From Beroe forskalii (taxonomy: Eukaryota > Ctenophora > Nuda > Beroida > Beroidae): a DNA stretch of 64,000 nt. A program made the translations under genes and the position numbers. The number at the start of each line of letters is the position of its first letter. Within the stretch, counting starts at the first letter, position 1. Below, piece by piece: positions 115-63,008 of this stretch. Where the stretch lies: NCBI GenBank assembly GCA_011033025.1, contig WFMF01000184.1, positions 248,001 to 312,000 on the forward strand. Reading direction: 5' to 3'. Below the pieces are notes generated by a model. That model was given only the letters and a program-made list of their open reading frames with translations, was not told the DNA's origin and ran no database searches.

Positions 115-2372
115 ATGGGCAATGACTGCCTCAGTTGTACTCTTGATCTGCTGCTTAACAACTTCATCATTGTCAGTGTCCTTAATGTCTTCTTCCACTG
201 CTGAGATCAGCTTTTTCAGAGGACCCAGTTTTGCTCTCCCACGCTCAATCTGTAATATTTAATTTAAACTGAGTTATATTTATATCTACATACATCTCTA
301 AAGTTAATAGCTTTAGAGATGTTAAGTGTGGATTTAATTTTATTCATTTTAATAAAACTCATTTTGATACCAATGCAGCTCCATTATTGTAACATACAAC
401 GATGATAATTTAGGCAGTAGATTTAAACCTAGAGAACTATGCCAAATCTCCTCTTGAAGTTTCCTCCTCTTAGCAGCAACACACTCCTGAAGGAAACCGT
501 AGGTGTGGACTTTGTGGTCGATGAGAGTACAGTCCCTGGGGTTAAGATATCAGGAATGAGAATACTGGAACGATATAATGTAAGGAAATATAACTACATA
601 GTATTGTATCTGCTGCATTAATTGTTCATAGGTATCTACTACTAAAAGGGGCCAGGGGATAGATCTGCAAGAGCCTGGTTAATGCTTTGCTGTAGGTTTC
701 AATTCTTAAAGTAGAAAAACGCAGTAAAACAAGAATCTGACTCTAAAACACACATTTTCAGCTCACCTACAAATGAGTTCATCACAAGTCTCGCAGTACA
801 AGTTGAGATCATTGTCCTTGTGTTCACTGCAATGCTCCACCTTGTTGTACACCAACCCCACATTCTCCTGAACCTCATCACGTGTTAGGAGCTTGTGGTT
901 GCTGACTGCTTTGATGTTCAGGTGAACCTTCTTACACTTCTCACAGAAATCAGTCTGACACTCAACACACCTGACAATAGAATAAGATATTGGAGTCTTG
1001 CAATGATTATACACACAGGTTTCAGAAAATAATGTTCCAATTTTAAGCATGTAGACAGATTATGAAACAAAACACATTCTTAATTCTGGATTATTTACTC
1101 CACACACCAGAACAAAGCAGGTTCTTCACAAGTGCTACAATTCTTAGTTTCCTTTTCTGTACTCTCACCAGCCTCAACCAACTTTACAAATTTATCTAGG
1201 ATGTCATTGGTAGGGAGCAGGTCAACTGTTGGCAGGGATAGCTTGATCTGTCTCAGACATATGGGACAGCTTACTCTGTTATCTTCATTGATCTGGAAAT
1301 GTCAGGAATGAATGATATTATGATCATAATCATTTTGGAACTAAAATAACTAACTGATACTTCATAATCAAATCCCAAGTATAATGAAAGGAAATACATG
1401 TGCTCATATTATTGGTAACCATATGTTGTATAATAAATTCATGAGTCCAGTCTTCATTATCAAGAGTGTAAATTAATGTAAGACACAAAGACTTACTCTC
1501 TTCTGAATGCATGAACTGCAAAATGAGTGGAGACATGTGAGCATTCGTGGATGCTGAAATCTTTCACTACAAAGAGGACAATCAAGAGATTTGACACTTT
1601 TCACAGCTTCCATTGCTAGCTGTTTATTCACTTCCATCACATTTTCTTCCTCAATTTCCATACCATCTGAAAAAAGTGATGGCATGGAAAACTATAATAA
1701 TTATTGACCGGTACATTATACCATAACTATACAAAAAATTTCTAGAACTAGTGAATATATTTACCATCAGTGAATATATTTACCATCAGAATTTTCTTCG
1801 ATTGATTCATTTTCCTTGTTCTTTTCAGGATAAACTTCTCTGATATCTGCAAGCTGCTTCTCTATTGATATCACTCGTGGAAAATGACTGGCACTTCTTT
1901 GTATTTCAATCTTCTTGCCTCTGAAAGAGATAAATTCAAAAATTAAATGGTATTTTATATGTAAGTTGCCATCATACAACCAAGCCAATGACAATCTTGC
2001 TTATAATCATATCATTTAAACAGTGCTAACAATAGATAGGAAATCACCATGGCAACTCTCAACAGTGAAGCATTACCTTGTTTCACTGAGAGGCTTGAGT
2101 TCAGGAAGAGGTATTCGAACTGGCTCAGGCTTATGAGAAACTTCAAGAGATTTTGGCTCACTATCAAGTATTCCACCTAGGAGTGCTCCCACACCACGAG
2201 TGTATAGTTTGTGATTATGATTGTTTTCTTCTTCAGTTATTGACTTCTCAGGGGAGCTTTCTGGAGAAACTACAACTGGAGCAACTGGAACAGCCACTAG
2301 AGCTTTAGGTTTCTCAGGAGTTGAATTGATAGTGGGATGTTCACCTTCCTCTAATTCACTGCTTTGAGACAT
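115..2372 (-). CDS. TRIM-family E3 ubiquitin ligase (RING, two B-boxes), 5' part
   Basis: Seen: exons on the minus strand at about 2372-2077, 1920-1784, 1666-1497, 1292-1106, 970-767, 535-429 and 249-115. The Met start MSQSSELEEGEH leads into an acidic, Pro/Ser-rich region of about 145 residues. Then comes a RING finger: CPLC and the C-x-H-x2-C-x2-C core (CLHSFCSSC) in exon 3, closed by CPIC in exon 4. A first B-box spans exons 4-5 (CSTC, CVEC, FCEKC, H). A second B-box spans exons 5-6 (CSEH, YCETC, C, DHKVH). Exons 6-7 are Lys/Glu-rich and probably start the coiled coil. The last visible donor (gtaagt at 114) shows the gene continues past the left edge, so any NHL, SPRY or filamin domain is unseen. 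Family knowledge: TRIM proteins are RING-type ubiquitin ligases. Phases agree across exons 1-6; the exon 6/7 junction does not close in phase with the borders given, so that border is uncertain. Confidence 0.85.
1751..1788 (-). repeat. Tandem duplication of the TRIM exon 2 splice donor (2 x 19 bp)
   Basis: Two perfect 19-bp copies lie side by side. Read on the coding strand, each is TGATG plus GTAAATATATTCAC: the last five exon bases followed by the first 14 intron bases. The upstream donor is the one used in the gene model; using the second would add 19 bases and shift frame. Confidence 0.9.
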
Positions 2373-3079
2373 ACCTAAGGTCTACTTCCCCCTGCTGGTG
2401 CTGGACCTGAATACAACTCATTATGCAAGTTATAGCCTTCAAAGCATTAATTTAATTTGAAGTTTAAAACTCTGCAACAAATATGAGTTTGAAAACAGAA
2501 TATATAATAAAATGTCAGTTTATTAAATCAGATTCTTTTCATTAAAATTTATTCCTTCATTTTGTTGCAGTGATTCAAGAACAACATCAAAACAATCAGC
2601 CAAATGTACAAAATTAACCAACACAAATAAGCATGGGATGGATTTCATCACTTTCAATTCAGTACTTTCAATTCAGTACTTCAATTCAGTACTTCAATTC
2701 AGTACTTCACTGCAAAGATGGCATTCAAACACAACAATTACGTGATCAATCTGTCAAATTACATTCCTGATTGAGCCAAAAAAATTATATGGTGTACCCT
2801 TTCACCATACTATCATAACTCAGAATGTTGTGTCACACTTTGTGGAGCTCCTGAAGAACAAGCGATAATTTTCTCGAAACTGACAGTTAAACAGTGGTGT
2901 AAAGTGTGTATGTTTCACTGAAATGATCAATCACTTCAAACGTATTTTAAAATATGGGTGAGTTTTGGAGAATACTATTTTGCCAATTTTCAAACGCAAT
3001 GATGTTTTTCTTAGGTCTTCAAAGCCTGGCACGTGCGTGCATTTGTCGTGCGATGTACAGCCCGGTGACGCCAGCAGCG

Positions 3080-3325
3080 AAGAGGCTGACGTCAGCTCGT
3101 AGGATGTTACCCTACCCTCGCGCGCGGCGCAACGTTCCACATTTGGACGTCACTTTGCAACCTCGCCATCCAGTCAGAAGAAATAGACGGGGCAACGTCC
3201 GTCGAGACGTCAGCTAGGCGTCATCGATTCCTCGATGAGAATCGGCGGCGCGCGCCCGGCGCTGATTCTCGAGAGGGTCTGTCAACGTCAGACAAGCGTG
3301 CATAAGCAACTATTATTATTGTCTG
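3080..3325. promoter_or_regulatory. Cluster of CRE-like TGACGTCA motifs
   Basis: The segment contains a full palindromic TGACGTCA near 3088 and four or so near matches (GACGTCA, ACGTCAG, TGACGTC) within about 240 bases. Known: CREB/ATF bZIP factors bind TGACGTCA. It lies between two divergent genes, so a promoter role is plausible but is inferred. The surrounding bases are GC-rich and partly repeated at 3500-3580, so chance or repeat origin remains possible. Confidence 0.35.
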
Positions 3326-3386
3326 ACGTCGTCGGACCCATTATTTCAAATTCTTAATTTAAAATTTATTTACGTCATATCAACTT

Positions 3387-4637: not shown

Positions 4638-7600
4638 CAGGTTCCAGCACAACCAGGAATGAGTACTCGTCCACAGCAGCAAGTTCAACAGCAGCAGCAT
4701 CAACTTCAACAACCCATTCAACCTCAAGTTACTCAGCAAGCAGTCCACCAAGGAAATGAGAGTGGACAATATTCTGTGGTACAATCTCCAGCTGTATCTA
4801 CCCCTCAACAAGTATTTACTTCTTCAAAAGGTCCAATGAGGGTGTGCTTAAAGAGACCTGGTAAGATTTCTTGAAATAGACTAGAATAAAATATGATACT
4901 TATAATAACTTTGAATCTTGGTCATTGACATTGCCAAGTATGGATCTTTTATGGAATTCTCATCAATTGTAGTATCAAGTGAGCCATATTCCAAAATAAA
5001 CTTCAGATGGCAGCATGGTTGAGCAAACACACCTCCGAGTATCTCAAAGTAAAGATGGAAAATTTGTCATCAATTCTAATCAAAATCAGGTAGTTAATGC
5101 AGTGTGGGTAGCAATTGGCTACCAAAGGGAATGTCACTTTTATTCAATATTGAAATCATGCATCCTATCACCAATGATATCTGTAATAAATCATTCAACC
5201 ATTCACTGACCTATGTCACTGATATCTTGGATGCTATGATGTACAGCCACAATCCACATGTACAGTGTTTATAATGTACATGTAGTTAGATAGAACCTTA
5301 TCATTAACAAGGAAGAGCCATTTTGCTTATATCTACCAGGGTGAATAATATCCTTATGTATTCAGGCAGGTCAGTGGGTGCAGAGCAATGGGGCACCTAT
5401 CAGAGCTATCCTAATCGACAACAAACAAGGAGGCACTCCCCTCCAACTGCCCCCTGGATCCCGTATTGTATCCCCATCCTCATCCACCCCACACATGATG
5501 GGGAGTGGTCCGGCCAGGGTCTCCCCGACTGTGGGTAGAGTAGGAGCTGCAGCTTACCAGATGAGACAGAATGCTGCTTCACCCAGTGGGATACAGAAGA
5601 TCGCTCCTAAGTTCAGCAGAAGCCAGATTAGCAATGCTAAGTGAGATGAGTTGCTTTCTCCTGTGAACAGTATTGAAATTTTGAATTCATTTAATCATTT
5701 CTCTGAGTTATTTAGGGGGTGGTTGTCACTCTCCGTTTTTTCCAGAAATCGAAAAGTGAAAACAAACAGGGCTTTATCAGATTATTAAACAGACATGTCT
5801 GTTAGTCGAATTTGTCCACTTTGTCTGCATTTCAAAAAGTACCTACAAGAACAAACCTGAGTTGTCCGCTTTTTTCACATACAAACGTATATTGTGGTCC
5901 AATGTTTTGTTCTTTTGTCTAGCAATGATTCAATGCCTTATTAAACTTTTAGAGTTTTAGGGTTCATTTTGGTGTCATTGTGCTATTGTGAACCTATTCT
6001 ATCTCAGAGACCAGCAGCCAATCCGTCAACCCCCACACACCGACAGCAAAACACCTGCCCTGAAAACCGAATACGACCACCAGACAATCAACAATCCTCC
6101 ATCTAGTGGGCCTGTCAGCATCTCCACCTCCATGCCGTCCGTTCAACTTGTAACTGACGGTATCCCTTCTGTCCACCCTGTTATCAACCCTCCCAATTCT
6201 GCAGTCCGGCCTAACCCTCCTCCTCCACGAGCGCTGATGACGTCATCAAACCATCCTGCTCAGTATCAGGACCACCACCAGCAACAACAGCAGCAGCAGT
6301 ACATTGGGGTGAGGCAGGAGTTCACAAGTCAGCATCAACCTCCCGTGCTTCAAGCTGCAAGTATGTTATCTCCCAGGTTGCAGTTTTAGATGTTATCATA
6401 AATGGATATATTGCATGCTTTTTGAAATACGAATTAACAAATGTAACCTGTCAAATTAATTATCCGCCAGTACTCATTTGACACAATTAATTCCAAATTT
6501 CAAAAGGTTGTCCATTTAATTTCAATCCCTCGAATCAGCAGGTATCCACGAAACGGACTACACCTCAACTCTCGTGGAACCCAACAACAATCTCTCCGTA
6601 AAACGAATGATGTACCACACGAACAACAAGACAACCCCCAAGCAACCCCCAATGAACAACCCCCAGACCCGCTCAACTGCCCATGGTAACAGGGGTGTTG
6701 CTATGTCAACAGCAGCAGGGGGTACTACCCCAGCCAGATCAGCTAACAATGCAGCTACAGATCGATGGAACAACTCCGTTCTGAATGGTATATTAAACCT
6801 TGTTTAACAGTACTGAGTATGATGTTAGAAATTTCATAGTAAACCATCTAATTTGTTTCACAGTATGTAGGATGTCAGAAATTTCGTAGTTGACCTTCAA
6901 ATTTATACTAATCACACTGGATTGTAACGATGGAAACATATTCTTCGCAATATATTTCTCTTAATTTCCTGTTCTGATATAACTTCCCATTTTCAGGCAT
7001 CTCGACTATTCGCAATGGAGGGGTAGGTGTGAGTAGTGGCACCAGGAAACGAGCCTCTCCAGTGCAGTTTGATGTCAAACCCACCCCGCCAACTGACAGG
7101 AAATATTGGCTAATCATATTTGGCAAATATTTGGCCTGGATTGGCTTCCGTTTTTGCCAAGGATAATCCTGTTTCACCGAGGCATCGGTTAAAACCTGCC
7201 CTCATTGACTAAGATGGGGGGTTGGTATAAAAATTGGCTATTGGGGGTTTAATGTTTCGGGGTTTATGGGAGTTCTTTGGCATTGTCCCTCCACAAAAAG
7301 TGACTTTACACAGGAAACGGCCGCGGTGTAGCTCTGAACGAGGTGGGAAGGGGCTCCGTCACTTTTCCAGCAAAGTTTGTGAGAAGGTGAAAAGCAAGGG
7401 GGTGACAACATACCTGGAGGTTTCAGAGGAACTGGTGGAAGAGTTCTCACAGCAGAGTGCTATGACTGGTGTCAATGTGAGTTGGTGTCAACGTGAGTTG
7501 GTGTCAATATGGTTGGTGTCAACGTGAGTTGGTGTCAATATGGTTGGTGTTAACGTGAGTTGGTGTCATTATGGTTGGTGTCAATATGGTTGGTGTCAAT

Positions 7601-8578
7601 ATGAGTTGGTGTCAATGTGAGTTGGTGTCAATGTGGACTGGTGTCAATGTGAGTTGGTGTCAACGTGAGTTGGTGTCAATGTGAGTTGGTGTCAATATGA
7701 GTTGGTGTCAATGTGAGTTGCGTCAACGAGTTGTGTCATTGTGAGTTGCGTCAATGTGACGGTGTCATTGTGAGTTGCGTCAACGTGAGTTGTGTCAATA
7801 TGGTTGGCGTCAATGAGAGTTGATTTCGATGTGAGTTGGTGTAAACTTGAGTGGAGAGTGGTATCAATGTGAGTTGGTGTCTATGAGTTGGTGTCAACGT
7901 GAGTTGGTGTCAATAAATACATCCAAATTTATTTTCCACCATCCAAGCCTCAAACTCCTCCCCAGGGCTGCACCCCCATCTCCTTCCATCGCTCAATCAT
8001 TCGACGTTAAGAACATCCGGCGCCGAGTGTACGACGCACTTAACGTCCTGTGTGCTATGAACATCATCAGTAAGGATAAGAAGGAGATCCGGTGGATTGG
8101 CCTGCCTACCAACTCACTTCAGGAGTGCAGACAGCCTGAGGTGAGGACCTGTAACTAAGGTATGTAGACAACGAGATATATTCATTGGGAATGAAAGTTG
8201 GGTATTTTACGGAAAAATTCCATGACCATATTTTCGAGTGGGCGCGAATCGCGCCACATAAAATCTCAATATGACGTCATCATAATACGTTAACATGGAT
8301 ATCTCGTGATATTTCAAAATCCCCACATTTCGTACCCAAAATTTCCTGTTTTAAATACCATCCATAGAGTCAACTTAAAATATGATGTTTGCTCTACGTA
8401 CTTTACGTAATGTGGTTTTCCTCTCAGAAGTACAAGGCCGAGCTGCAGCAGCGTATCAAGGAGAAAAGAAGCGAGCTCAGGAGTTTATGTTACAGTTAGT
8501 AGCCTACAAGACCCTCATAGAAAGGAATAGGAAGATGGAGGAGAGAATGGGGGTCACCCCGAAAACGCCAGGATTCAG
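4638..8578 (+). CDS. TFDP: Transcription factor Dp (TFDP), E2F dimerisation partner, incomplete
   Basis: Seen: exons at about 4638-4860, 5007-5089, 5366-5640, 6008-6360, 6539-6787, 6997-7099, 7314-7476 (or -7523), 7966-8140 and 8428-8578. The first six encode a long Gln/Pro/Ser-rich N-terminal region and join in phase. The next two encode the winged-helix DNA-binding domain, with [20 protein letters not shown] and [33 protein letters not shown]. The last exon starts the coiled-coil dimerisation region ([17 protein letters not shown], then LIERNR). Known: DP proteins pair with E2F to bind cell-cycle promoters; RRRVYD is the family signature. Breaks: a one-base loss near 8478 shifts frame inside the last exon, and the donor at 7100 reads GA rather than GT. 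The C-terminal DP domain is missing, replaced downstream by poor sequence. The extra-long N-terminus is unusual and part could be another gene. Confidence 0.88.
7466..7915. repeat. 16-bp minisatellite built from the TFDP exon/intron junction
   Basis: About 25-28 units of a 15-16-bp motif, GTGAGTTGGTGTCAAT and close variants, fill the intron. The first unit overlaps the exon: the last ten exon bases (TGGTGTCAAT) plus GTGAGT are exactly one unit. Many units therefore carry a good donor consensus (AAT or AAC followed by GTGAGT). Units degrade towards the 3' side (AATATGG, TGCGTCAA). Confidence 0.95.
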
Positions 8579-8619
8579 GTGCTAAGGGTACAACTGTAAG
8601 GGTACGACTGTAACCCCTG

Positions 8620-9534: not shown

Positions 9535-9765
9535 CCCACTTATGACGGGTCTATAAGCATGGTTCGTTATTAACAACAGTTCGTTATTAACATGATTCGT
9601 TATTAACAACAGTTCGTTATTAACAACAGTTCGTTATTAGCAACAGTTCGTTATTAACAACAGTTTGTTATTAGCAACAGTTCGTTATTAACAACAGTTC
9701 GTTATTAACAACAGTTCGTTATTAACAACGGTTCGTTATTAGCAACAGTTCGTTTTGTCGCAAAT
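9535..9765. repeat. 17-bp tandem repeat
   Basis: About ten to twelve copies of AGTTCGTTATTAACAAC, some with AGCAAC in place of AACAAC. Isolated relatives of the unit recur at about 11490-11540, downstream of the broken receptor, so the repeat flanks that receptor on both sides. Confidence 0.9.
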
Positions 9766-18670: not shown

Positions 18671-21600
18671 CTAATTCAACTGCAGGATTTCAATGATGGA
18701 CGAGAAACTGGTGACGTACCAATCCGAGGCTTCTCTTACTGCACTTCTTTGCACGTTACCTCCGAACCCGATGAAAATGTCCTGCGAAGAAATGCTTATC
18801 AGATCTAGGTTAGTTTTTTATCTACTAACCACAGTACAGAGATACTTTTATAGGGCGTTATTGTGGCTGTGAAATAGAAAGTAGCTTGCAAGTTTGATAT
18901 GTCCCGTACGTCCAGGGGACCACACATACACGAGACAATTGCAGTTTACCCTCTTGAGAGGTTAAGATAATCCTCAGTAACTTCTTCACAATAAAAACAC
19001 AATCTGGACTTAATTCACGCATCATTAGTGATTGGACACTTACAGCAGGAGGTCTTGCTTCAGCATCCGTCATTCCATCGCCAACCATAATGATCCTACG
19101 AATACAAAATAATAATAATAATAATAATAATATTATAATATAATATACACACACCCCAATCTTACAAATATTCACAATAATAACATCATCAGAAGCAAAC
19201 TGTTTCATTGTTTCAATGTGGCTACACACCTATACCCAAGCGTCAGCAGTCGCCTCTTTTTGGGACCGGTTAATAAGAGGGCCGGTTGAATAAAGGCCAA
19301 TATGAAAACTTAAATCCTGGAAATTTTGACGATTCAGAACGGCATTATTGAAATTAATGAATCTTCTTTATTCGGTACGAACTTTTTGTAGTTGAAACTG
19401 TCCTTTAGAAACTGGACTGCAGTTGCTTTTCCGCCACTTTTGGAAGTGAATGACTCCTTGTCGAACCCTCTGTAGCGTCCTGAAACAAAGAACATAGTGC
19501 CAACTACTAGTTACTACTCTAAGGCTGCATCTAGGGGCGCCCGAAGTGCACACCCTGATCACGGGGTCGTGTGAGAGGCGGTTAGGGTACTAACTACTAA
19601 TGGCATTGGCCGCACAGCTAAGAGCTGAACGCCTTTCAGTGCTTCAGTGCATCATTTAGTGGCAGCTTGATATTAGTACAACTGGAAAAGATTAACAGCC
19701 AAGTTTAGCACTTAGCTCGTTCAGAAAGGATTTATTCAGGTATAACCTTGCACGGTAGGTACGCCACTTTTTCATACACCCACAAGTCACAGTAATACTC
19801 CAGCACAGAAATATATAGTTGCGAAATACACGGGCAAAATTCCAACTTTAATGGCATCAAAAATGAATCTCAGGGCGACGAACCATGTTCATCGAATATC
19901 AGAGTGTTAGCAATAATGTGATCCCGAGGTATTCCACATCTGTTAGCTGCCGGGTCAATGAGACAATGGAATCCGCCTGACACAAGACAAACGTCTATGT
20001 TACGCGACCTCATCACTTCCACCAGCTCCCTGCGAATTGTAGCTTTGTAGGGAGGTGAGAACATGTACACACAGAGTTTAGAGCAGACTTATTGTATCTT
20101 GAAACATTAGGTATCAATAATCACTCTTATCGGTAATCAATAATACAATATAAGAATATAGTTCCTATCTAGTCCTAAGTTCTATTAGTATTGTGGTTAT
20201 TCAAGGAGTTTTTAATTTCATAACATTATCGTACTTGAACCCTGGGGTGAGCGAAGGAGGACTGTTTTGGACCAGGTCTGAGATCTGAAATAGTGTTCAC
20301 TTTAGACTGGCAGACTGCACTATAGCTAAATTACCTATCATAGTAGTACGAGAAAGGTGGAAATACTGAAAGAAACGTTTGGAATTCATTGCTTCACCAT
20401 CATGCTGTCCTTCTGAGTTCTGAGGCACTTACCATCTGCGTGGTCGGTTGGATGATGTTGAGTCTGTCAGTAAGAGGCACCTACCATCTGCGTGGTCGGT
20501 TGGATGATGTTGAGTCTGTCAGTAAGAGGCACCTACCATCTGTGTGGTCGGTTGAATGATGTTGAGTCTGTCAGTAAGTGGCACCTACCATCTGTGTGCT
20601 GTGGTCGGTTGGATGATGTTGAGTCTGTCAGTTAGAGGCACCTACCATCTGTGTGGTCGGTTGGATGATGTTGAGTCTGTCAGTAAGAGGCACCTACCAT
20701 CTGTGTGGTCGGTTGGATGATGTTGAGTCTGTCAGTAAGAGACACCTACCATCTGCGTGGTCGGTTGAATGATGTTGAGTCTGTCAGTAAGAGACACCTA
20801 CCATCTGTGTGGTCGGTTGAATGATGTTGAGTCTGTCAGTAAGTGGCACCTACCATCTGTGTGGTCGGTTGGATGATGTTGAGTCTGTCAGTAAGTGGCA
20901 CCTACCATCTGTGTGCTGTGGTCGGTTGGATGATGTTGAGTCTGTCAGTTAGAGGCACCTACCATCTGTGTGGTCGGTTGGATGATGTTGAGTCTGTCAG
21001 TTAGAGGCACCTACCATCTGTGTGGTAGGTTGGATGATGTTGAGTCTGTCCGTAAGAGCGTCTCGGAAGGATGAATTGCTGCCCATGGCTTTACGAGTGA
21101 GGGCTTTCACTTCCTCTGCTTTGCCAGCATGACCAGCCATCTCGTCTATACCTTCACACGACAACATGGTACTGAGGAGAGAGGGTATTGGAAGGTAGAT
21201 TCAGGAGAGAATGTGAGGTGAGGAGGGATGGTGCTTATACTCTTATAAAGCAACTTCAGGGTTTTACCAGGCAAAATGGGCTTAGTAAACCCATTGGTTT
21301 ATAACCTCGACCATTGGGCGGCCGATCGAAACAGGATACATCCCTCGTGAAGTATCCCAAAATGGACCCAATAGGCGCGTGTCTATGTATTTTCAATCGT
21401 TTAGGTTTCTTACTTTAATAGTTTAATGATACAAATCCTTTTCATGGCATCAGATATTATTGGGTTAACTTCGCAAATGTTTATAAAAAATTAACCCCCC
21501 TTCCCATTATTAAGGTGAAATTAGTTTCATTACTTCAATATATTGGCATATTGTCGCAAAAACTCAAGGAGAAGTCATGAATAGGGTGTTTTACAATATT

Positions 21601-43200: not shown

Positions 43201-46200
43201 AATTGAAATTTACCGGTTGTAGCTGTGTGTGTCCAGCGCATAGACATAGATAAAATACAAAATATAATATTTAATTACAGTAATTTTCCTGATTACATTT
43301 CCCTGTACACAATATTTTATGATAATATGCCCGCAAGTGTACTGTAGAGTAAATAGTACACGTCTTGTATTATATTGTGGGTGTACTCTGTACAGCACCG
43401 TGTAGCAGATGTAAAGTCGGCTGAGAACGGTCCAAAATATCATCTGATCATATTTTGGACCATTCTCAGCCTGGATGATCAATTCTTTTTGTGTGAGCAA
43501 TATATATTAATTAATACGACAAATAAATTTAGACTCAAGCCGACTCAAGGGTACTTTCATCTACAAACTACAGTACAGAAGTGCTGTAGTTTGGGACCGT
43601 GCATATCTCAGGGTTAGAAAAGGCCGTTGACTTCAATATTTGACACGGGAAAATGACGGGATTGGCAAGTTGAAGAACCCTAACGGGGTTGCTGTGGATA
43701 ACAATGGTTACTTTTACGTGGCTGACAGCTCCAAACATCGAATAGCCGTCTACAACCCAAGTTAGTTTTACAACCCAAGTTAGTTTTACAATCCAAGTTA
43801 GTTTTTACCTGTTAGTTTTTATAGTTAGTTGAATAATTGATACAGCTATTTGCTACAGAACTTAGTTGATACAGTTAATACAGCTGTTGGATGGATTCAG
43901 CAAAAAGTGAAAGTACCACCCCTTCTTTGGGCACCGCCCTACTCTCAGTCTCCTTTCGGACAAAATAATCTTCTATTGAGTATATTAATGTCTGTCGCTA
44001 TATAATGCCGTTCTTTGTGCAACCGAGAATTGTGCAACTTCTTAGATTGTAATTTTTATCTCGTCCCCCTTTTTCATCCGATTTCTTCCCAATCCAAAGG
44101 GGAAGTTCTCCCATGAGATAGGAGCTAAGAAGAGTGCCAACGCCCTCAAATCCCCAACTGTTGTGTCGCTAGATCACAGACTCGCTCCTAGTTCCGGGGA
44201 AACCTCGCCAGCCAGCCCAGCACTTCCTAGACGACGGGTGAGTGGTCACGGACGATGGTCACGTGGTAGATAACGATTGATTTGATTGGTTTGTTAGATC
44301 AGATCACCAGAGATTATGACCATGCAATTTCACTCCATCAATGCTAAAATGACAACATCATGACACACGCCGCCAAGTGCCTTCACAGTACACTGAGAAG
44401 ACTGACAGTTGTCAACAAAAAAAGAAATCAACACACCCTGACAACACCATGACAACACCATGACAACACCCTGACAACACCTTGACAACACCCTGACAAC
44501 ACCACGACAACACCTTGACAACACCCTGACAACACCCTGACAACACCCTGACAACACCCTGACAACACCTTGACAACACCCTGACAACACCTTGACAACA
44601 CCTTGACAACACCCTGACAACACCCTGACAACACCCTGACAACACCCTGACAACACCCTGACAACACCCCTCAGGATGAGTATGAGAGCAGTAGCAGATC
44701 ACGAGATTACAGGGCCTCCCCCTACTCTGACCCCCACTACTCATCTTCCTCTTACTACTCATCCTCTCACAGATACTCCTCCCATTACAGTACTATCACC
44801 TTGACAACACCCTGACAACACCCTGACAACACCCTGACAACACCTTGACAACACCCTGACAACACCCTGACAACACCTTGACAACACCTTGACAACACCC
44901 TGACAACACCTGACAACACCCTGACAACACCCTGACAACACCTTGACAACACCCTGACAACACCCTGACAACACCCCTCAGGATGACAACACCCTGCAGA
45001 TCACCCTGACAACACCCTACTCTGACCCCCACTTACTACTCATCCTCACAGATATTCCTCCCATTACAGGGCCTCCCACTCTGACAACACCCTACTCATC
45101 TTCAACACCCTGACAACATCCTGACAACACCTTGATACAACACCTGACAACACCCTGACAACACACCCTGACAACACCTTGACTGACAACACCCTGACAA
45201 CACCCTGACAACACCCTGACAACACCCTCAACACCCTGATGACCCTCAGGATGATGAATCACGGATTACAGGGCCTCCCCCTACTCTGACCCCCACTACT
45301 CATCTTCCTCTTACTACTCATCCTCTCACAGATACTCCTCCCATTACAGTACTATCACCCTGACAACACCCTGACAACACCCTGACAACACCCTGACAAC
45401 ACCCTGACAACACCTTGACAACACCCCTCAGGATGAGTATGAGAGCAGTAGCAGATCACGAGATTACAGGGCCTCCCCCTACTCTGACCCCCACTACTCA
45501 TCTTCCTCTTACTACTCATCCTCTCACAGATACTCCTCCCATTACAGTACTATCACCTTGACAACAACACCCTGACAACCCTGACAACACCCTGACAACA
45601 CCTGACAACACCTTCACACCTTGACAACACCTGACAACACCCTGACCCCACCCTGATCTTCCTCTTACAATATCCTCTCACCTGACAACACCTGACAACA
45701 CCTTGACAACACCCTGACAACACCCCAACAGGATGAACACCCATCAGGAGTAGCAGATGGCAGATCACAGGGCCTCCCCCTACTCTGACCCCCACTACTC
45801 ATCTTCCTCTTACTACTCATCCTCTCACAGATACTCCTCTCATTACAGTACTATCACCTTGACAACACCTTGACAACACCCTGACAACACCCTGACAACA
45901 CCCTGACAACACCCTGACAACACCCTGACAACACCTTGACAACACCCCTCAGGATGAGTATGAGAGCAGTAGCAGATCACGAGATTACAGGGCCTCCCCC
46001 TACTCTGACCCCCACTACTCATCTTCCTCTTACTACTCATCCTCTCACAGATATTCCTCCCATTACAGTACTATCACCTTGACAACACCCTGACAACACC
46101 TTGACAACACCTTGACAACACCCTGACAACACCTTGACAACACCCTGACAACACCTTGACAACACCCCGACAACACCCTGACAACACCTTGACAACACCT

Positions 46201-49200
46201 TGACAACACCCTGACAACACCCTGACAACACCCTGACAACACCCTGACAACACCCTGACAACACCCCTCAGGATGAGTATGAGAGCAGTAGCAGATCACG
46301 AGATTACAGGGCCTCCCCTATCACCTTGACAACACCTTGACAACACCATCTTCCTCTTCATTACAGTACCATCCTCTGGCAGATACTCCTCCCATTACAG
46401 TACTATCACCTTGACAACACCCTGACAACACCTTGACAACACCCTGACAACACCCTGACAACACCCTGACAACACCCTGACAACACCCCTCAGGATGAGT
46501 ATGAGAGCAGTAGCAGATCACGAGATTACAGGGCCTCCCCCTACTCTGACCCCCACTACTCATCTTCCTCTTACTACTCATCCTCTCACAGATACTCCTC
46601 CCATTACAGTACTATCACCCTGACAACACCCTGACAACACCCTGACAACACCCTGACAACACCCTGACAACACCCTGACAACACCCTGACAACACCTTAC
46701 AGTACTATCACCCTGACAACACCCTGACAACACCTTGACAACACCCTGACAACACCTTGACAACACCTTGACAACACCTTGACAACACCCTGACAACACC
46801 TGACAACACCCTGACAACACCCTGACAACACCATGACAACACCCCTCAGGATGAGTATGAGAGCAGTAGCAGATCACGAGATTACAGGGCCTCCCCCTAC
46901 TCTGACCCCCACTACTCATCTTCCTCTTACTACTCATCCTCTCACAGATACTCCTCTCATTACAGTACTATCACCTTGACAACACCTTGACAACACCCTG
47001 ACAACACCTTGACAACACCCTACAGCAGTCACCGGGATAGAGACCGTGAGTATAGTATTAGGGGAAACGTTGTGACAGATACAGAAGTACATTTTAATGC
47101 ATTTTCATCCTCATTGGGGCAATGCAATAGCTCAATAGGTGCAGGAAAGTGCCCCATTTGGTTGCATTTGATTGCATTTGGTTGCATTTTGAATTAATTT
47201 AGCATTAAGGAATTTTCAAGGGCCTGGGTATTGACCGATCAACGTTTGCCACTGCAGGCGACTACCGAGACTACCGGGACTATCACAGAGACTCCTCCCG
47301 ACGAAGGGAGTCTTACGAGAGACGACCTGAGAGGGTGGAACACGAATATCCTGCCAAGAAAATGAAGAGTATATTTAAAATATAAATGTAGAAATGTAAA
47401 TATCTAAAGTGGTTCAAGTCCGTGCTCGTTTTTTGTCCGATAAAGGGGAACGCAGTCACCAGCTCTTTCATTAGGTCCTTACTAGCCAGGAAAATTAATA
47501 ATCATTCTGCATGTACTAGAACAAAATTTAGAATTATGACAGTTTGTTTGTTGTGAATTTATTATCAAGAATAAATGTAATTAATTGTTGGTGTCACACC
47601 GCCTATTTTTCGTGCGCATGGGTTTAGAACTTTGACGGTTTGTAGTGACTTTTTGGATTCAGGGATGAAACGGGTCAATAATTGATGATGTCTTAATTCC
47701 GCCTATTATCTTCGTGTAGAGTGGTGGTAGGTAACTTTGTTGGTGCCGAGGCTTGGTTTCGATTGTCACAAACAAATTACGGCTACATTGTCTCTACAAG
47801 GCGTGAGCACACACTTTCTCTGTCAAATTAAAATCTGTCAATAATTAATGGGTTTTATTAGCCGCAGTGATGTTTATTGTCAGTTATGTGGTTTTACATG
47901 TACTGACAAGTATTGGTTTGTTTCGGATCTCTCTTTAGTTTCGTATGTTTGAAGATATACCTGAGTCCAGCCTTTGTTGTATAATATGGTCTTTGAAGGC
48001 TTGAAAAGGCCTTAAATTTTCCTGATTAGAAATTATCTACGGACCTGAACATCAATTCATATTATTATCTCGAGGGGGAGGAAAATAACTTAGTACACGA
48101 TTTTCAGTAAAACTTAGAAAATAAGAGGTTTATCTGAGTCAAAATTAGGAAATAAAAGGCTTTTCTGAGCCAAACATATTATGAAATGATAAGGTTTTTC
48201 AAACTTAGAAAATAAGTTAATTTCTTTCAGGAAGATGAATCCTGCTGACACAGAGCTGAATGGGCCCCGAGGAGTGGAGATCAGTTCCGCTGGTTTGGTG
48301 GTTGTGGCGGACACTACCAACCACTGCGTGAGTCATAGTTCTTTTTGTGAAAATTATTTATCTGGAAAATTAGTTCTTACACCGCCTGCCGACGACTAGC
48401 ACGCATGCTATTCGAAGGCTCCTGTTTTTCAAACTTTCAGTTTTTCAACTTGCTCCCTTGTGGAAATTTTAGTCATTGGGTGAAGAACCCCCTGAAATTT
48501 GCGATGAATTCCTCTAAATACATAAATTCTACAACTTCTGTTTTCTATCACGTTTCAATATTAAATTTTCCTCCCAACACCACTTGAAGTGAAATGTGAA
48601 AGCTTAGAATATAATATTGAACATATAAAATTGACGAAAAGAAACTAAATTGTTTTCTCTATTAGAAAGGATAAAACGAAATTATATGGAATCACTGCGT
48701 GAATTTTATAGGTTTTATCCTACCGTCGGTTTGTCTAGACCATGTATCGCTAGCAATTGACCTAATTGTTGACCTTAGTCCGGTTTTTTTCGTTTATTGC
48801 TGGAAATTGCGTTCTGTAATCGATTTAGGCTTTTTTCTTTGTCCTTCGGGTGACACTTAGTATTGTGTAACTAAGCGAATGTATAGATCTTGCTTCCTTA
48901 TATTTGAACAGTTTCTTTGACAAATCTGATTTGAACTTTTCCGTTTTCACTGGTTTATATAGTCTGAAATTTGTCGATTGATGGAGGCAAAGCATGTATC
49001 CCTGGCTTGAGACCTCCTTGTGTCTTGCATACTTTGTCTCGTTTTATGTACTGTGAAATAACTTGCTTCGCCGAAACCTGTTTTGCCATTCAATCTAATT
49101 AGCAATTCAATCTAATTAGCATTTCAATCCAATTTGAAACACAAGGAAATTAATTGATTGCCCTGAAGCGCTGATCATATATAATTGGGCTTACTTCTCA

Positions 49201-52200: not shown

Positions 52201-53221
52201 CACTGTATATTGCTGCCAGTGCTGTTTCAACGATTATGTTAAACTTCTATGAAATACATTGACACGCGCTTCAGGATCCGAAGTTTGGGATACTGATACT
52301 TCCCGAGGGATGTATCAGGTTTAGACTCGAGCCCGAAGAGTGAGGGTCCAAACAATGTATGGTCTCGATCAGGCAGTTGCCTATGTATTGTACGGGCCGT
52401 GAATAAATCAATTTGAATTTGAATTTGGTGAACTCTCGCAGGTTCTGAAAACGGAGAGTTTCTCTTCCCCTCCGACGTTGCAGTTGACAAGTGTAACAAT
52501 GTCTTTGTGGCTGACTGTGACAACAACAGAATCCAGGTATGTGTCGATATGGTTGACTTCGAGAATTTGCAGATTTTAGTGGTATTTTAAGAATGTTATG
52601 GGAATTTTCAGAATATTAGTTTCGTTCCCCGAGGCATTTCATCTACCTACCTAGCTTCGTTTCCGAGGGGTGCAATCCCCCGATTCGAAGATTTGAAGTG
52701 CTGTAATTTAGCATATTTATAAAATGGATTAATATTAGATCTACGAATTAGTTCTTTGTGTTGATACACTGCCTTCAACAATGTAATCGGCATAGTTTTA
52801 GGGATTCTTTGTTGACTGTCAATCTAACTGAAGAATGTAAATGTTGAGTGTTATCAAGATAATCATGAGTCTAATAAGTTCACACTTTCCAGCTCCTCAA
52901 ATCCAAATTCTGCAAAAATCTCAAGAATTGCATTTTCCTGTGAAACATCGCTATTCGCTTATTCGCTGAAGTTTTTGGTTGGGCAATTTAGGTTTTCCGA
53001 CTTTTGAATTCTTTAGTCTCCTCATTGAATGGTACAAGTTTTATATAATCTCTATCTTTTATCTGCTTCATCAGGTATTTGACAAAGAAGGCCAGTTCAT
53101 CAGATCAATCAATCTGGACAAAGCTGGTACAACCCTAAAGAAACCTCTAGCTGTTGCTGTTGATATGCATGGTAATGTTGCTGTGTGTGATACAGGTCAC
53201 CACCGAGTTTGGTTGCTTTAG
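37220..53221 (+). CDS. NHL-repeat beta-propeller protein (TRIM-NHL-like), N-terminus not found
   Basis: Exons at about 37220-37355, 39053-39252, 43658(or 43670)-43760, 44100-44237, 46850-47045 (earlier copies upstream), 47258-47368, 48241-48327, 50497-50567, 50845-50968, 52442-52536 and 53075-53221. Blades recognised by P-x-G-V-A-V-D ... VAD..N.R..V: FRFPTGLAFHPSGYVVVVD, LKNPNGVAVDNNGYFYVAD, LKSPTVVSLD, LNGPRGVEISSAGLVVVAD, MRTPSGVSLDTADNIYITD, FLFPSDVAVDKCNNVFVAD and LKKPLAVAVDMHGNVAVCD, ending HHRVWLL. Between blades three and four sits a Ser/Tyr/Arg-rich insert (DEYESSSRSRDYR ... DYRDYRDYHRDSSRRR). Known: NHL propellers bind RNA or protein, typically in TRIM-NHL or LIN-41-like regulators. 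No RING or B-box was found upstream. The 3' joins are in phase, but exon 3/4 and the join at 47368 are not, no donor is visible after 50567, and a 15-bp duplication splits the first two blades. Either the gene is decaying, or the assembly has indels. Confidence 0.75.
37356..39052. other. Intron of the NHL gene
   Basis: AT-rich. A short GGGTTTTGACGGGC-like repeat run is at 37366-37455. A matched pair of inverted segments (ACAGTCACTGTTCAAAA near 38288 and TTTTTGAACAGTGACTGAA near 38366) gives a hairpin of about 95 bp. No exon supported. Confidence 0.5.
41789..42136 (+). CDS. Short basic frame inside the transposon, unidentified
   Basis: 115 codons, MFSLLIGFLMLGPSKSQAIQ to RFHRLQRLKN, with many Lys/Arg and a hydrophobic start. 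It is the only sizeable plus-strand frame in the part of the element missing from copy A. I do not recognise it. It could be a remnant of a transposase or accessory protein, or chance. Confidence 0.25.
   Translation: MFSLLIGFLMLGPSKSQAIQQLMHYVECRLKLRETLLFFVNWEDKSGKLPRPRLQLNEKYRVFNLSILSKQVRSFRNVICLEKRGFTHISDIKRVLQLIEAKKVSRFHRLQRLKN
42595..42795. repeat. 60-bp tandem repeat with AGACGTGAT/ATCACGTCT arms
   Basis: Three units, the last diverged, each with AGACGTGAT, then ATCACGTCT and GCCACGCTCAGCGCG. The same motifs recur near both transposon ends (GATCACGTCTCTC near 39428; CACGTCTCGAGAGG and GCCACGCTGAGCGTGGC at 43030-43070). This is the usual arrangement of subterminal transposase-binding repeats. 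Confidence 0.85.
43420..43470. repeat. Near-perfect 50-bp palindrome
   Basis: GCTGAGAACGGTCCAAAATA pairs with its complement ending TTTTGGACCATTCTCAGC around a short CATCTGATC centre. One mismatch in the stem. It lies in the NHL intron just outside the transposon. Confidence 0.85.
43751..43804 (+). repeat. Triplicated exon end and splice donor in the NHL gene (3 x 18 bp)
   Basis: Three consecutive 18-bp units TACAACCCAAGTTAGTTT (third with one change). The first ten bases of the first unit are the end of the blade-two exon (VYNP) and GTTAGT is its donor, so the donor exists in triplicate. Reading into the second unit meets a TAG in frame. Confidence 0.9.
44440..47025. repeat. Amplified Ser/Tyr-rich exon mixed with a 10-bp CTGACAACAC minisatellite
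   Basis: Six good copies of an exon start (acceptor cccctcag, then GATGAGTATGAGAGC) begin at 44675, 45432, 45953, 46272, 46494 and 46850. More fragmentary copies lie near 44980, 45243 and 45729. Most encode DEYESSSRSRDYRASPYSD, then PHYSSSSYYSSSHRY. Between them run long arrays of CTGACAACAC or TTGACAACAC. On the plus strand the array contains TGA in every frame each 30 bp. The long Gly/Cys/Val frames on the minus strand are artefacts of the 10-bp period. The genuine exon end is probably CAGCAGTCACCGGGATAGAG followed by ACC and gtgagt (47045), which joins in phase to the exon at 47258. Confidence 0.92.
47369..50496. other. Introns of the NHL gene around the blade-four exon
   Basis: AT-rich, with no repeat array or exon except 48241-48327. 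The frame following the exon at 47258 runs to a TAA at 47383-47385, so read-through there would end the protein. At 50410-50465 there is a GAAAAAGTGGGATTTTT/AAAAATCCCCAAATTT motif related to the element repeats at 32571. Confidence 0.5.
50969..52441. other. Intron of the NHL gene
   Basis: No exon, repeat array or inverted repeat that I can support in this stretch; moderately AT-rich. Confidence 0.5.
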
Positions 53222-53605
53222 AGTATGTTGCTAATTGTTGGTTGCTATGTTACAATGGTTGCTATGTTACAATGGTTGCTATGGAAACTGGCACAACCCT
53301 AAAGAAACCTCTAGCTGTTGCTGTTGATATGCATGGTAATGTTGCTGTGTGTGATACAGGTCATCACCGAGTTTGGTTGCTTTAGAATGTGTTGCTAAGT
53401 GTTGGTTGCTATGTTGCAATGGTTGCTATGGAAACTATGACAACCCTAAAGAAACCTCTAGCTGTTGCTGTTGATATGCATGGTAATGTTGCTGTGTGTG
53501 ATACAGGTCACCACCGAGTTTGGTTGCTTTAGAATGTGTTGCTTAGTGGTGGTTGCTATGTTACAATGGTTGCCATAGAAACTGAAAGAAACCTCTGGCT
53601 GACTG
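53120..53605 (+). repeat. Tandem triplication of the terminal NHL exon and 3' flank
   Basis: The coding sequence from about residue GTTLKKPLAVAVD to HHRVWLL and stop at 53221, plus some 60 bases of TTGGTTGCTATG-rich flank, is repeated at about 53290-53400 and 53437-53545. Spacings are about 165 and 147 bp. A fourth fragment (GAAAGAAACCTCTGGCTG) is at 53582. Both extra copies keep the same frame and stop, but lack an acceptor consensus of their own (the exon start CAGGTATTTGACAAAG is not included). Confidence 0.93.
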
Positions 53606-53609
53606 AGTT

Positions 53610-56158: not shown

Positions 56159-56188
56159 TTGATCAATAACCCTACCACTTTGCCTAGG

Positions 56189-59335: not shown

Positions 59336-59358
59336 CTTCAATCCTGCTGAGAAGGTCT

Positions 59359-62300
59359 ATGATAAGGATAAAGGAAGAACCAGTCGAAGTTATCGAAATA
59401 AAGGACGAATTAGAAGACCCGCCAGAAGACTGTTTTCAAAGTGTAGCTCCTCCTGAAATACCAAGGGAAAATAATCCCTACCTTTCCTTGCAAGATCCTC
59501 GTTGTCATGGAAGCCACGATGTTACGTCACGTGCTAATCGTCAGTCACGTGACAGCGATGCCCAGTCACGTGACGATCAGTACTTGTCTCAGCTGACCAA
59601 CTTTAGCTTTTCGGAAATAATGGAAGATTCGAGAACTTTTGATATTTCGCCCCAACAACACCGAACCCCGCCAGTAAGACGGAGTTCTTCGACCTATTCT
59701 CAAGTGGCTGAACTTTCACAAAGACAAAATATATGATATCCACATCAACACCATCTTTAACAACAGCCACTCAAAGCCCCACTCAAAACCCCACCCAAAA
59801 TCCCACCCAAAACTCGACTCCCACCCCTAATCCCACGCCACACTTCTCTGCACCGGCAGTCATTAAGCCATACTCACACACCACCATCCCTAAATACGAT
59901 AGTCGGGGCAGGGTACTTACCTTAGGCCAGAGGTTGGAGCTAATTCGGCAGAAGAAGGAAGAAGAGGATGAAAGAGGAGGGCAGCAGTCTTCCCCGGTTC
60001 AGACTTCCCCGGTTCAGGTATTGGGCAAAGTTAGAATTTATTCGTATTTGGGGGCAGGGGTGCCAGTATTCAGTAAGCTAAAGCTGTCAATAATGACAGT
60101 AGTGTAAAGGCAGCGGTAACCGATATGAATATGCAACGATGCATTGAAGGATTGACTCAGAGTAAGAACCGCACCTTGTAGTACAAGCAGTTTATTTTTC
60201 ATTGAAGTTCTCTTACAGTATTTTAGGCGTTTTTATCGATCGATTCATGTGCACACATAGGCCATAGGGGTTACTATGCCAGTCATCAATCTCTTGGTCC
60301 TCAGGCCCCTGGTTCAGCCGGTATCCCCTCTTCAAGCCCCACCGGAGAAAACACCTCGTCTGACACTGACACGGCCCGGCACTGTGCAGCAGATAGCAGT
60401 GGTTCAACAAACAAGTTAAAAGAGACAACAAACAATGGGACAGGAAACAGCAACAAGACAGAAAACAGCACGGCAGAAAACAGCAGGACAGAAAACGGCA
60501 ACAGGACTGAAAATCAGACGAACAACAAATCAGAAGAGTCCGGGAACGGTTCTAACTTGGAGATGTTTGCCGGTGAATTGATTATTACATTAGTTGGTTG
60601 AAATCACATCTACTTGGGCTGATCAAATCTGAAAGAATCACTCGCTACGTTCGTTCGGCATTTTATGAGGTGAAATAATTCACTCGCTCCGCTCGTGCAT
60701 TGTTTGAAATTTATAATAAGATGATAATAAAATACCCCAAGATATAAACTACAAGGTAGCTCTGAAGGTCCTGGTGACGGATCAGGTCCAGAACGTCATG
60801 TTCAAGAGAGGCAGGGACCACTACGAGAAAAACGGGTACGATTCCTGGAGAAATGGACATTCCAAATGAACATTCTAGTAGAGTATGATTCCATGGTCCC
60901 CAAATAAACATACAGTTTTTGCCCCGAAAATTTGTTTACGGTAAAGCAGACATGGGAATTTTCCAATAAATCTTCAGCAGACAGGACACTTTCTGAAGGC
61001 ATCTCAGCTTTAAAACTCGATTTATTCCAGGTTACGGATAAGGATCACCAGAACGAAGTTCCCTGAGTACGACGAATGTCAGATTTACACCAAGGGTTAC
61101 CCCAAAGAGGTGACTTGATTAATTTCCCTGGAGGATTTGATGATTTTCCACTCAGTATTATGAGAAACTTTATGTTTGTACCATAGATTCTCAACAAATC
61201 CGGTTACGGTTAGACAAAAAGTGCCGTTTAACCGGTTTTTCGGTAAAGAATTTGTTAATCAACCAGAATCAAAGTATTCGGAATAAAAATATTCGGAATA
61301 AAAATATGCGGAATAAAAATATGCGGAATAAAAATATTCGGAATCAAAATGTTCGGTTTAGTTTCCGGTTTAGTTTCCGGTTTATTTTCCGGTTTAGTTT
61401 TCGGTTTAGTTTCCGGTTCAGTTTCCGGTTTAGTTTCCGGTTCAGTTTCCGCTAAAATGCCCAGTTAACCAGTATTTTGGTCTCGGATAGGTTAACCGGT
61501 CATTTCCTACGGCAGGTCCTGGAAATTCTGTACTCTATCACAGAAGACCTCCGCCAACATTGCAGTCGTGTTCAGTTCTGTCAACCGGACGCTTCAGCCA
61601 GAGACGAAACTATGTTACTGGTGGTTGACAGTCGGATTATTCCTGAGGTAAGAGCAGAATGCCTGAATTGAGATGAAATTTGAGGGAATATGGGAAAATT
61701 AGCAGTTGATTTGATTGAAATTCCCCATGATTTTTTCTCATTGCCAAGACTGAAACACTTCGCTCATTTTTGGATATATTGTGCCAGTTGCTTCGTCACA
61801 TTGCATGCCATAACATTACCCTACACCTTTTATTTTGATTTCCATCATCGTATTTGACATTTCTACAAGAGTACAAGAGTACAAGCTCGTCACCTTTGAT
61901 CAAAATGTTATTATGGTATCAAATTCCTTGCTGAGTTGTTCCGGTGGAGGAAAGGTAAGCGAGTTATCCAGGATATCGAGCAGATGAGTTCAGTTTGGAT
62001 CCGAGTCGAGGATTGGATATCCGAGAACGAGACTGTTGTCAGTGTGACGGGTCACTTGAATCAGATGCGAACTGGACTCAGGTTTTCATAAAAAAAGAAT
62101 AATTTTAGTATTCTGCACGTGCATCGATCGATGAAGGGATCGATATTCGATAAAGGCACACATTTTGCAGCGTGCACAATTTACATTTCATCTTTTCATG
62201 TAGATTTTCTTCGAAAGTGCAGTATTTTCACGCTTTTTTATCGATTCAATTACACGAACTCAAATGGGTCATTCTAGCTCCGTTTCAGTCAGCTGATCGA

Positions 62301-62806
62301 AGTGATCGTTCACTCCGTGCACGCGGAATCCCTCCGTCCCCTCTTCCACTTCATCCCTTCTCCCAGTTACCATGGCAACTCTAACAACAGTAGTCCGTAT
62401 CACGTGATGTCTCGTCATGTGACCGGGCAGATGATCTCCCCCCGCAAGTGGTAAGATATTACAAATCGAGGAATTAGCCGAGTGGGATAATTATCGATCG
62501 ATGAAGGGATTGAAAAAGATTAAAGACGCCAATTTCACAGTGCGTGCCTTTAAATTTTCATACAATTTCCCTCAAAATTGCAGTAATTTTACGCTTCTTT
62601 CCGAAATTGCGATCAATCCATGTGCTCACACATTATAGGGTTATGGGTAACCTGCGGTCCTTGGCAGGTTGCCGTGTGACAGAATGGACTTCCACCACTG
62701 GATGGCGTTCAGAGATTACCGGGTCCTACAGAGAGTACGCAGTAATACGCCTGTCCGTCAGAACTACCGGTCTAGAGACAAGAGTATGAATAGGACGGCT
62801 TACTAA
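59359..62806 (+). CDS. KH-domain-like protein with SUMO-motif N-terminus, eight exons
   Basis: Exons at 59359-60017 (start could lie further 5'), 60305-60572, 60742-60835, 61031-61109, 61516-61647, 62293-62450 and 62668-62806. All joins from 60017 on are in phase; I count seven, or eight if exon one is split. N-terminus: MIRIKEEPVEVIEIKDELED with two psi-K-x-E SUMO-type motifs, then Ser/Pro/Thr-rich sequence and a Lys/Glu-rich helix (TLGQRLELIRQKKEEEDE). Exon two is Asn/Thr/Ser-rich. Exons three to five read like a KH fold: INYKVALKVLV, FKRGRDHYEKNGLRIRIT, EYDECQIYTKGYPKEV, LEILYSITEDL. The canonical GxxG loop is replaced by KRGR. The C-terminus is basic (VRQNYRSRDKSMNRTAY). A one-base break lies at 59712-59735: the first frame stops at 59734-59736 and the second opens at 59733. 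RNA binding is inferred; I cannot name the gene. Confidence 0.72.
59988..60017 (+). repeat. Duplicated exon end before a splice donor (2 x 15 bp)
   Basis: TCTTCCCCGGTTCAG is followed directly by ACTTCCCCGGTTCAG and then the donor gtattg. It encodes SSPVQ-TSPVQ, and 15 bp keeps the frame. This matches the pattern of exon-end duplication seen in other genes of the window. Confidence 0.85.
61255..61460. repeat. Two adjacent tandem repeats in an intron of the KH-like gene
   Basis: First, about six units of 15 bp, TTCGGAATAAAAATA; then about eight units of 12 bp, CCGGTTTAGTTT. The flanks carry TTAACCGGT/ACCGGTT motifs in opposite orientation (61200-61245 and 61462-61502), so the tract sits inside a loose inverted repeat. 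Confidence 0.9.
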
Positions 62807-63008
62807 GATCCCCTGACACAAGCCCCCCCCCCCCCAGGATTAACGTTTCCTAAAACCGTAACACTGAATTCTGATCATGCGAACCCTAGACCTAACTCTA
62901 ACACAAACTGATGTACATGTAGATGCTTATGGGGGGGGGGGGAGCAATACGCCTGTCCGTCAGAACTACCGGTCTAGAGACAAGAGTATGAATAGGACCG
63001 CTTATTGA
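62741..63008 (+). repeat. Duplication of the last coding segment of the KH-like gene
   Basis: The final 66 bases, encoding NTPVRQNYRSRDKSMNRTAY and the stop (62741-62806), recur at 62943-63008 with four or so changes and an intact frame ending TATTGA. Between the copies lie a C run (about 62823-62837) and a G run (about 62932-62942), which are complementary and could pair. Confidence 0.93.

What the first reader, a model, noticed from the sequence alone, without database searches (positions are those of the whole stretch)
1751..63008. Recurrent tandem duplication of exon ends with their 5' splice sites across five unrelated genes
Eight arrays in this window are centred on exon borders: TRIM exon 2 (1751-1788, 2 units), TFDP (7466-7915, about 25-28), PSPH exon 2 (20421-21055, 12), three in the NHL gene (43751-43804, 44440-47025, 53120-53605) and two in the KH-like gene (59988-60017, 62741-63008). 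In four of them each unit holds the last exon bases plus the GT donor, so donor sites are stacked in series. Chance placement of so many minisatellites exactly on exon borders seems unlikely. Known background: tandem duplication of an AGGT-containing exon segment is a proposed route to new introns. The inference is a genome-wide amplification process at exon ends, with effects on splice-site choice.
Basis: partly seen in the sequence, partly recalled or inferred. Interest (0 to 1): 0.86.

Follow-up and report, generated by a model that had tools for sequence, protein, structure and literature searches.

The report
Minisatellites straddling exon-intron borders
Short DNA repeats in this animal genome sometimes run across the ends of exons and copy the splice site many times over; such repeats are already described in lancelets, and a small sample here finds them about as often as random duplication in a repeat-rich genome would give.

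Summary
The arrays are real. In four genes (TRIM, TFDP, PSPH, NHL) each repeat unit holds exon-end bases plus a GT donor. The claim of eight exon-border arrays is too high: one is an in-frame coding repeat beside a single donor, one an array of repeated exon-like segments, and two do not fit.

An exon-end amplification process is not supported, though a modest one is not excluded. In 53 kinesin and myosin introns, random segment duplication predicts 2.3 border-spanning arrays; 3 were seen, 1 at a donor and 2 at acceptors. Stacks of a strong donor word: 15 against 14 for a matched word in contigs C1-C77. Only the first of 12 PSPH donors and of 2 TRIM donors keeps the frame. Such structures are published as 'mirages' in lancelet genes.

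TFDP differs: its array belongs to a dispersed 15-16-bp minisatellite at 38 other places, oftener near coding-like segments than other arrays (9 of 28 against 2 of 34). One orientation abuts donors, the other acceptors (11 loci, post hoc). That is the lead worth following.

The parts
1750..1789 (-). TRIM gene: 19-bp unit x 2.1, each full unit with GATG|GTAAAT; first intron bases at 1783 and 1764
   Evidence: TRF; of the two donors only the first gives an open spliced frame into the RING exon, acceptor near 1667; RING and B-box matches on neighbouring exons; one match in the genome search
7231..7476 (+). TFDP open frame holding the exon that runs into the first unit of the array
   Evidence: joined to the next exon it matches DP-2, E 1.1e-32
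7467..7914 (+). TFDP 16-bp minisatellite, 28.6 copies, filling most of the intron; member of a dispersed family
   Evidence: one search lists 60 matching stretches: the window, the second TFDP copy on C278, and 58 stretches that I merge by hand (within 2 kb) to 38 places
7966..8158 (+). next TFDP exon (open frame; exact 3' end not fixed)
20240..20284 (-). small PSPH exon beginning ISDLVQNSPPSLTPG that follows the array intron (acceptor CTATTTCAG)
20422..21058 (-). PSPH array: 12 units of 52-57 bp, each with exon end plus CAGATG|GT; last true exon base 21015
   Evidence: human PSPH alignment; one match in the genome search
43751..43805 (+). NHL gene: 18-bp unit x 3.1, CCAA|GTTAGT; last exon base 43760
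   Evidence: (NHL repeat, E 6.2e-9); one match in the genome search; following exon not found
44433..47019 (+). 11-bp satellite with six copies of an SR-rich exon-like segment (115 bp in 5 of 6) preceded by CCCCTCAG
   Evidence: no Pfam match
53124..53583 (+). 147-164-bp repeat of an NHL-coding piece plus flank; not shown to be a splice border
59985..60017 (+). 15-bp in-frame coding repeat ending at a single donor CAG|GTATTG
62741..63004 (+). two 62-bp copies about 200 bp apart, not a tandem array by TRF

Best explanation
These are minisatellites that happen to lie across exon-intron borders, in a genome whose sampled introns are about one sixth minisatellite. Shown: the units, their presence in several genes, hits on both donors and acceptors, and a frequency that fits random segment duplication in a small sample. 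Inferred: a short segment spanning a border is duplicated by slippage or unequal exchange. It survives because the outermost splice site (first donor or last acceptor) still joins the exons in frame, so the further copies fall inside the intron and are neutral. The array then grows and homogenises like any minisatellite. The TFDP array is a separate case: a dispersed 15-16-bp minisatellite that sits in a number of introns.
For: Null test on 53 introns: 18 arrays (score 50 or more), 17.5% of intron bases in arrays, expected border-spanning 2.33, observed 3 (1 donor, 2 acceptors) (other score cut-offs gave 2.72 and 1.87 expected, the same 3 observed). Distinct stacks of a donor word 15 against 14 for a matched word in contigs C1-C77 (single-word totals 16,902 and 16,650). 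Other arrays of 100 bp or more lie within 40 bp of coding-like segments in 2 of 34 cases against 4% of random slots. Only donor 1 of 12 (PSPH) and 1 of 2 (TRIM) keeps frame. The PSPH, NHL and TRIM stretches matched only themselves in the genome search, so they look local (that search skips very common words). The first PSPH unit, the coding one, carries two bases that the other eleven lack.
Against: The sample is small: 3 events against 2.33 allow 0.27- to 3.8-fold. Raw pair counts of the donor word (1,585) exceed the matched words (568 and 561), though two large arrays supply most of the donor rows listed; and 6 of the 14 control stacks are one recurring sequence, so by kinds it is 14 against 8 (p 0.14). 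The reversed donor word (6,452 pairs) is microsatellite-like and a poor control. The 2 of 34 misses the true PSPH border array, which passes only at the laxer threshold (5 of 34). Four donor arrays in one window is lopsided; I did not seek acceptor arrays there. No RNA data.
Confidence: 0.68

Rival explanations
1. A process that specifically amplifies exon ends with their donors, for instance tied to splicing or R-loops at the 5' splice site.
For: Four donor arrays in one 64-kb window; donor-word pairs exceed the matched controls in raw number, and kinds of stacks are 14 against 8.
Against: Acceptors hit 2, donors 1 of 53 introns, total as expected at random; equal numbers of distinct stacks, 15 against 14; one of the four, TFDP, is a dispersed repeat.
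Confidence: 0.12
2. The dispersed 15-16-bp minisatellite (GGTGTCAAnGTGA) spreads into introns, or makes introns, because one strand carries a donor (GTGAGT) and the other a pyrimidine-rich stretch ending in CAG. It would act like an introner with no body other than the satellite.
For: 38 places beside the two TFDP copies (merged by hand). Near coding-like segments in 9 of 28 arrays against 2 of 34 others, p 0.009; without TFDP itself and the seven loci of the 15-bp subfamily, 7 of 20, p 0.009. It takes up much of introns in ASF1, PDE6-delta and UDPGT genes, whose joined exons match those families, and of a myosin intron. GGTGTCA-sense arrays abut donors in 3 of 3 and TGACACC-sense arrays abut acceptors in 8 of 8 loci counted by hand (p 0.006).
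Against: Intron ends outside the satellite share no sequence by eye, unlike introners. The polarity was seen after the fact and weakens to p 0.055 with three ambiguous loci; in ASF1 the array is near both ends (28 and 17 bp), and in UDPGT one lone core lies at the donor. In three of the eight (L012, L016, L027) the upstream exon was not located. The 15-bp subfamily sits in longer repeats with shared flanks, so ordinary element spread is possible.
Confidence: 0.15
3. Assembly artefacts: collapsed or expanded copies at repeats.
For: No reads could be examined.
Against: The TFDP array with the same borders is on two contigs with differing internal units; border arrays occur on three other contigs.
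Confidence: 0.05

Closest known systems
[quoted passage not shown] tandem repeats over splice sites in PGBD5), PMC3087553 and PMC3902484 (passages read; Canestro 2002 known only through the citation, not held)
   Same: Tandem units spanning the border, both donor and acceptor sides, units of about 10-160 bp, many units with AG/GT signals, a cluster-edge copy left out of homogenisation (PSPH unit 1 here).
   Different: Probably another animal lineage (mitochondrial code and contig suggest a non-bilaterian, ctenophore-like animal: inference). No RNA evidence here, and no two haplotypes of one border array.
[quoted passage not shown] ATP2A1/ATP2A2; fission yeast 24-bp repeats; potato RdRp), PMC4974935 (passages read)
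   Same: Tandem duplication multiplies splice signals.
   Different: Here the segment spans an existing exon-intron border; no new intron is shown.
Internal tandem repeats at exon-intron boundaries in human segmental duplications, PMC2812944 (passages read)
   Same: Minisatellites of about 30-bp units at borders, with effects on intron structure.
   Different: Those are recent primate paralogues with transcript support.
Introners (recalled; no paper read, listing only)
   Same: Dispersed family occupying introns of unrelated genes in both orientations (TFDP family only).
   Different: No shared element ends found by eye; no intron presence/absence comparison possible here.

Membership tests
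Mirage (border minisatellite) | tandem units that span an exon-intron border | tested here: met
   TRIM, PSPH, NHL; kinesin C212 and C897, myosin C225
Mirage (border minisatellite) | both 5' and 3' borders affected | tested here: met
   1 donor and 2 acceptors in 53 introns
Mirage (border minisatellite) | regular splicing not disturbed | not testable with these tools
   no RNA; only the frame argument
Mirage (border minisatellite) | length instability between haplotypes | tested here: inconclusive
   TFDP has two genomic copies with 28.6 units each but differing internal units, and it is not a local border duplication; PSPH, NHL and TRIM gave one match each
AGGT tandem-duplication intron gain | new intron at a position formerly exonic | not tested
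   no related genome available
Introner-like element (TFDP family) | many near-identical introns in unrelated genes | tested here: inconclusive
   same satellite in introns of TFDP, ASF1, PDE6-delta, UDPGT and myosin genes, but at 65-83% identity among the 58 other stretches listed
Introner-like element (TFDP family) | shared element ends including splice sites | tested here: not met
   by eye, the sequence between satellite and exons differs from gene to gene; the donor lies in the satellite in TFDP and apparently in L005 and L019, the acceptor apparently in L016 and myosin C225

The most novel reading that the evidence does not exclude
A dispersed 16-bp minisatellite acts as a two-way splice-signal cassette. 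Read one way it supplies stacked GTGAGT-like donors and occupies the 5' end of introns; read the other way it supplies a pyrimidine-rich, CAG-ending tract and occupies the 3' end. Its spread has built or rebuilt introns in dozens of unrelated genes.
Probability: 0.12. Interest if true: 0.8.

Novelty: new member of a known kind. Interest (0 to 1): 0.45.

Why it matters
Border minisatellites were described in lancelet genes; finding them at a few per cent of sampled junctions in what looks like a distant animal suggests that they are a normal by-product of minisatellite-rich genomes rather than a lancelet oddity. They give natural series of duplicated splice sites in which first-donor use can be tested directly. 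The dispersed 16-bp family, if its strand polarity holds, would bear on how repeats enter or create introns.

Tried and rejected
Donor-specific amplification: not supported by the null test and the stack counts, though not excluded at a modest level. The reversed donor word as control was set aside because it resembles a TGGA microsatellite; it gave more pairs than the donor word.

First splice readings for PSPH with a later acceptor gave no open frame; the missing small exon was then found. For the window copy of TFDP, the strong first donor is out of frame with the CCCCAG acceptor and open only with an AG at 7904 at the array's end; a weak unit-boundary donor or a third-unit donor would be open with CCCCAG, while the C278 copy is in frame with its first donor. 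Unresolved.

Dropped rows: 7 of 33 kinesin exon pairs gave no consistent splice pair, and 1 of 28 myosin pairs was dropped for a bad score. Two myosin stretches on C173 are close paralogues, so not all introns are independent. In one search the 9 of 28 counts TFDP itself and one locus (L009) of the 15-bp subfamily. Other thresholds gave 12 of 28 against 5 of 34 and 8 of 28 against 2 of 34; L007 and L008 were left out as duplicates of L012 and L019. The figure 9 of 21 printed rested on a wrong guess about which loci were hit; the right figure is 8 of 21 (p 0.004).

Pfam gave nothing for 4 of 10 proteins, and for 4 of 10 (from L005, L019, L012, L027); one in each had only matches below the curated cut-off. 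Family searches for PF00176, PF00118 and PF00133 did not complete.

Print: of the papers found by searches, those that I opened (passages of PMC3087553, PMC3902484, PMC4974935, PMC2812944, PMC6991124) report border repeats in lancelet and human genes; this is no proof of absence elsewhere. PMC4039745 (C. elegans intronic minisatellites) was seen as a listing only.
Full report
What is there. TRF finds the arrays named, except the pair at 62741, and they are far beyond chance: ten first-order Markov simulations gave 0 or 1 array each, while arrays cover 13.1% of the window. Reading the sequence and testing frames confirms four arrays whose unit carries exon-end bases plus a GT donor: TRIM, TFDP, PSPH and NHL. 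In PSPH the border is firm. The exon aligns to human phosphoserine phosphatase, a small following exon lies at 20284 with a good acceptor, and of 12 stacked donors only the first gives an open frame. In TRIM only the first of two donors does. For NHL the following exon was not found. The other four do not fit as described: 59985-60017 is a coding repeat next to one uncopied donor; 44433-47019 holds six copies of an SR-rich exon-like segment within an 11-bp satellite; 53124-53583 is an NHL-coding repeat without an established donor; and 62741/62943 are two copies about 200 bp apart.

Is it specific to exon ends? I built a sample that did not depend on repeats: consecutive exons of kinesin and myosin genes, with splice sites set by frame and profile continuity. 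26 of 33 kinesin pairs and 27 of 28 myosin pairs were usable. Of these 53 introns, one donor (C212, unit with CTACTCCAG|GTTT) and two acceptors (C897, a 30-bp unit x 15; C225, a 34-bp unit x 8) lie in arrays. If the founding segment of each intronic array is placed at random over the intron and its borders, 2.33 border-spanning arrays are expected; 3 were seen (P(3 or more) 0.41; 95% limits 0.27- to 3.8-fold). So the phenomenon recurs, is two-sided, and needs no special process, within the wide error of three events.

A second test used word counts over all 216 Mb. The donor word AGGTRAGT occurs 16,902 times, with 1,585 close pairs; the composition-matched TGAGRTAG occurs 16,650 times, with 568 pairs, and its reverse 13,076 times, with 561 pairs. 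Grouping the listed rows by place, by hand, gives 15 distinct donor stacks and 14 control stacks in contigs C1-C77; two large arrays (C1:1947819, C77:417549) supply most of the donor rows listed. Against my reading: 6 of the 14 control stacks are the same 11-bp sequence, so by kinds it is 14 against 8 (p 0.14). The reversed donor word had 29,409 singles and 6,452 pairs but is microsatellite-like. A large donor-specific excess is thus unlikely; a modest one is open.

TFDP is a different thing. Its array matches 58 stretches, at 38 places when merged by hand, besides a second TFDP copy on C278, whereas the PSPH, NHL and TRIM stretches match only themselves (that search skips very common words). 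The family is a 15-16-bp minisatellite, GGTGTCAAnGTGA. A 15-bp subfamily sits in longer repeats with shared flanks. Family arrays lie within 40 bp of coding-like segments in 9 of 28 cases, against 2 of 34 other arrays of 100 bp or more and 4% of random slots (p 0.009). Leaving out TFDP itself and the 15-bp loci it is 7 of 20 (p 0.009). The measure is rough: it misses the true PSPH border at this threshold. Pfam supports spliced exons across such introns for PDE6-delta, ASF1 and UDPGT, and an Rrp44-S1-like exon beside a fourth; a myosin intron carries the satellite too. In 11 loci with a flanking exon, counted by hand with TFDP counted once, GGTGTCA-sense arrays (TFDP, L005, L019) abut the donor, and TGACACC-sense arrays (L012, L016, L020, L021, L022, L026, L027, myosin C225) come within about 45 bp of the acceptor, Fisher p 0.006; adding three loci (L013, L024, L028) with weaker exon evidence on the donor side gives p 0.055. 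Not all are clean: in ASF1 the array is near both ends, UDPGT has one lone core at the donor, and L005, L012, L019 and L027 rest on coding score without a Pfam match. The rule was noticed after the fact. The strand reading GTGTCAATGTGAGT offers donors and the other strand offers CACCTTGACACCAG-like tracts, which may explain it (inference).

What it is. The lancelet literature describes such border minisatellites as 'mirages' at donors and acceptors of globin, Adh and TnC genes, with similar repeats in PGBD5, reported not to disturb splicing (passages of PMC3087553 and PMC3902484). The window arrays meet the anatomical features tested; splicing could not be tested. The animal here is probably not a lancelet: COX1 sits on a 13,339-base contig, has four in-frame TGA, and uses AGR at seven sites read as arginine (that arginine is expected at several of them is recalled), as in the table that a ctenophore paper names. 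'Ctenophore-like' is an inference only.

Mechanism. Segment duplication across a border, survival because the outermost site still splices in frame, then ordinary minisatellite growth. The frame results support neutrality; the mutational step is inferred. I rate this 0.68, the dispersed-satellite splice-cassette idea 0.12-0.15, and a directed exon-end process 0.12.

Noticed in passing
window 44433-47019: Six copies of an SR-rich exon-like segment (115 bp in 5 of 6), each preceded by CCCCTCAG and followed by GTACTATC (5 of 6) or GTACCATC, inside an 11-bp satellite; could be a series of alternative exons.
   Followed up: partly
window 7231-8158 and L002: The TFDP stretch has a second, about 89% identical copy over about 1.9 kb on C278; a one-base difference in the downstream exon puts the window copy out of frame for its strong first donor with the CCCCAG acceptor.
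   Followed up: partly
window 9562-9754, 11492-11539 and L026:291-571: Another apparently dispersed 17-bp minisatellite (GTTCGTTATTAACAACA and its complement).
   Followed up: no
L006, L009, L010, L014, L015, L017, L018: A 15-bp subfamily (ATGGTGTCAATCTGG) in repeats with shared flanks, several on contig C647; looks like a longer dispersed element.
   Followed up: partly
L069 (C1134): 13.3-kb mitochondrial contig with a derived COX1, in-frame TGA and AGR read as arginine.
   Followed up: partly
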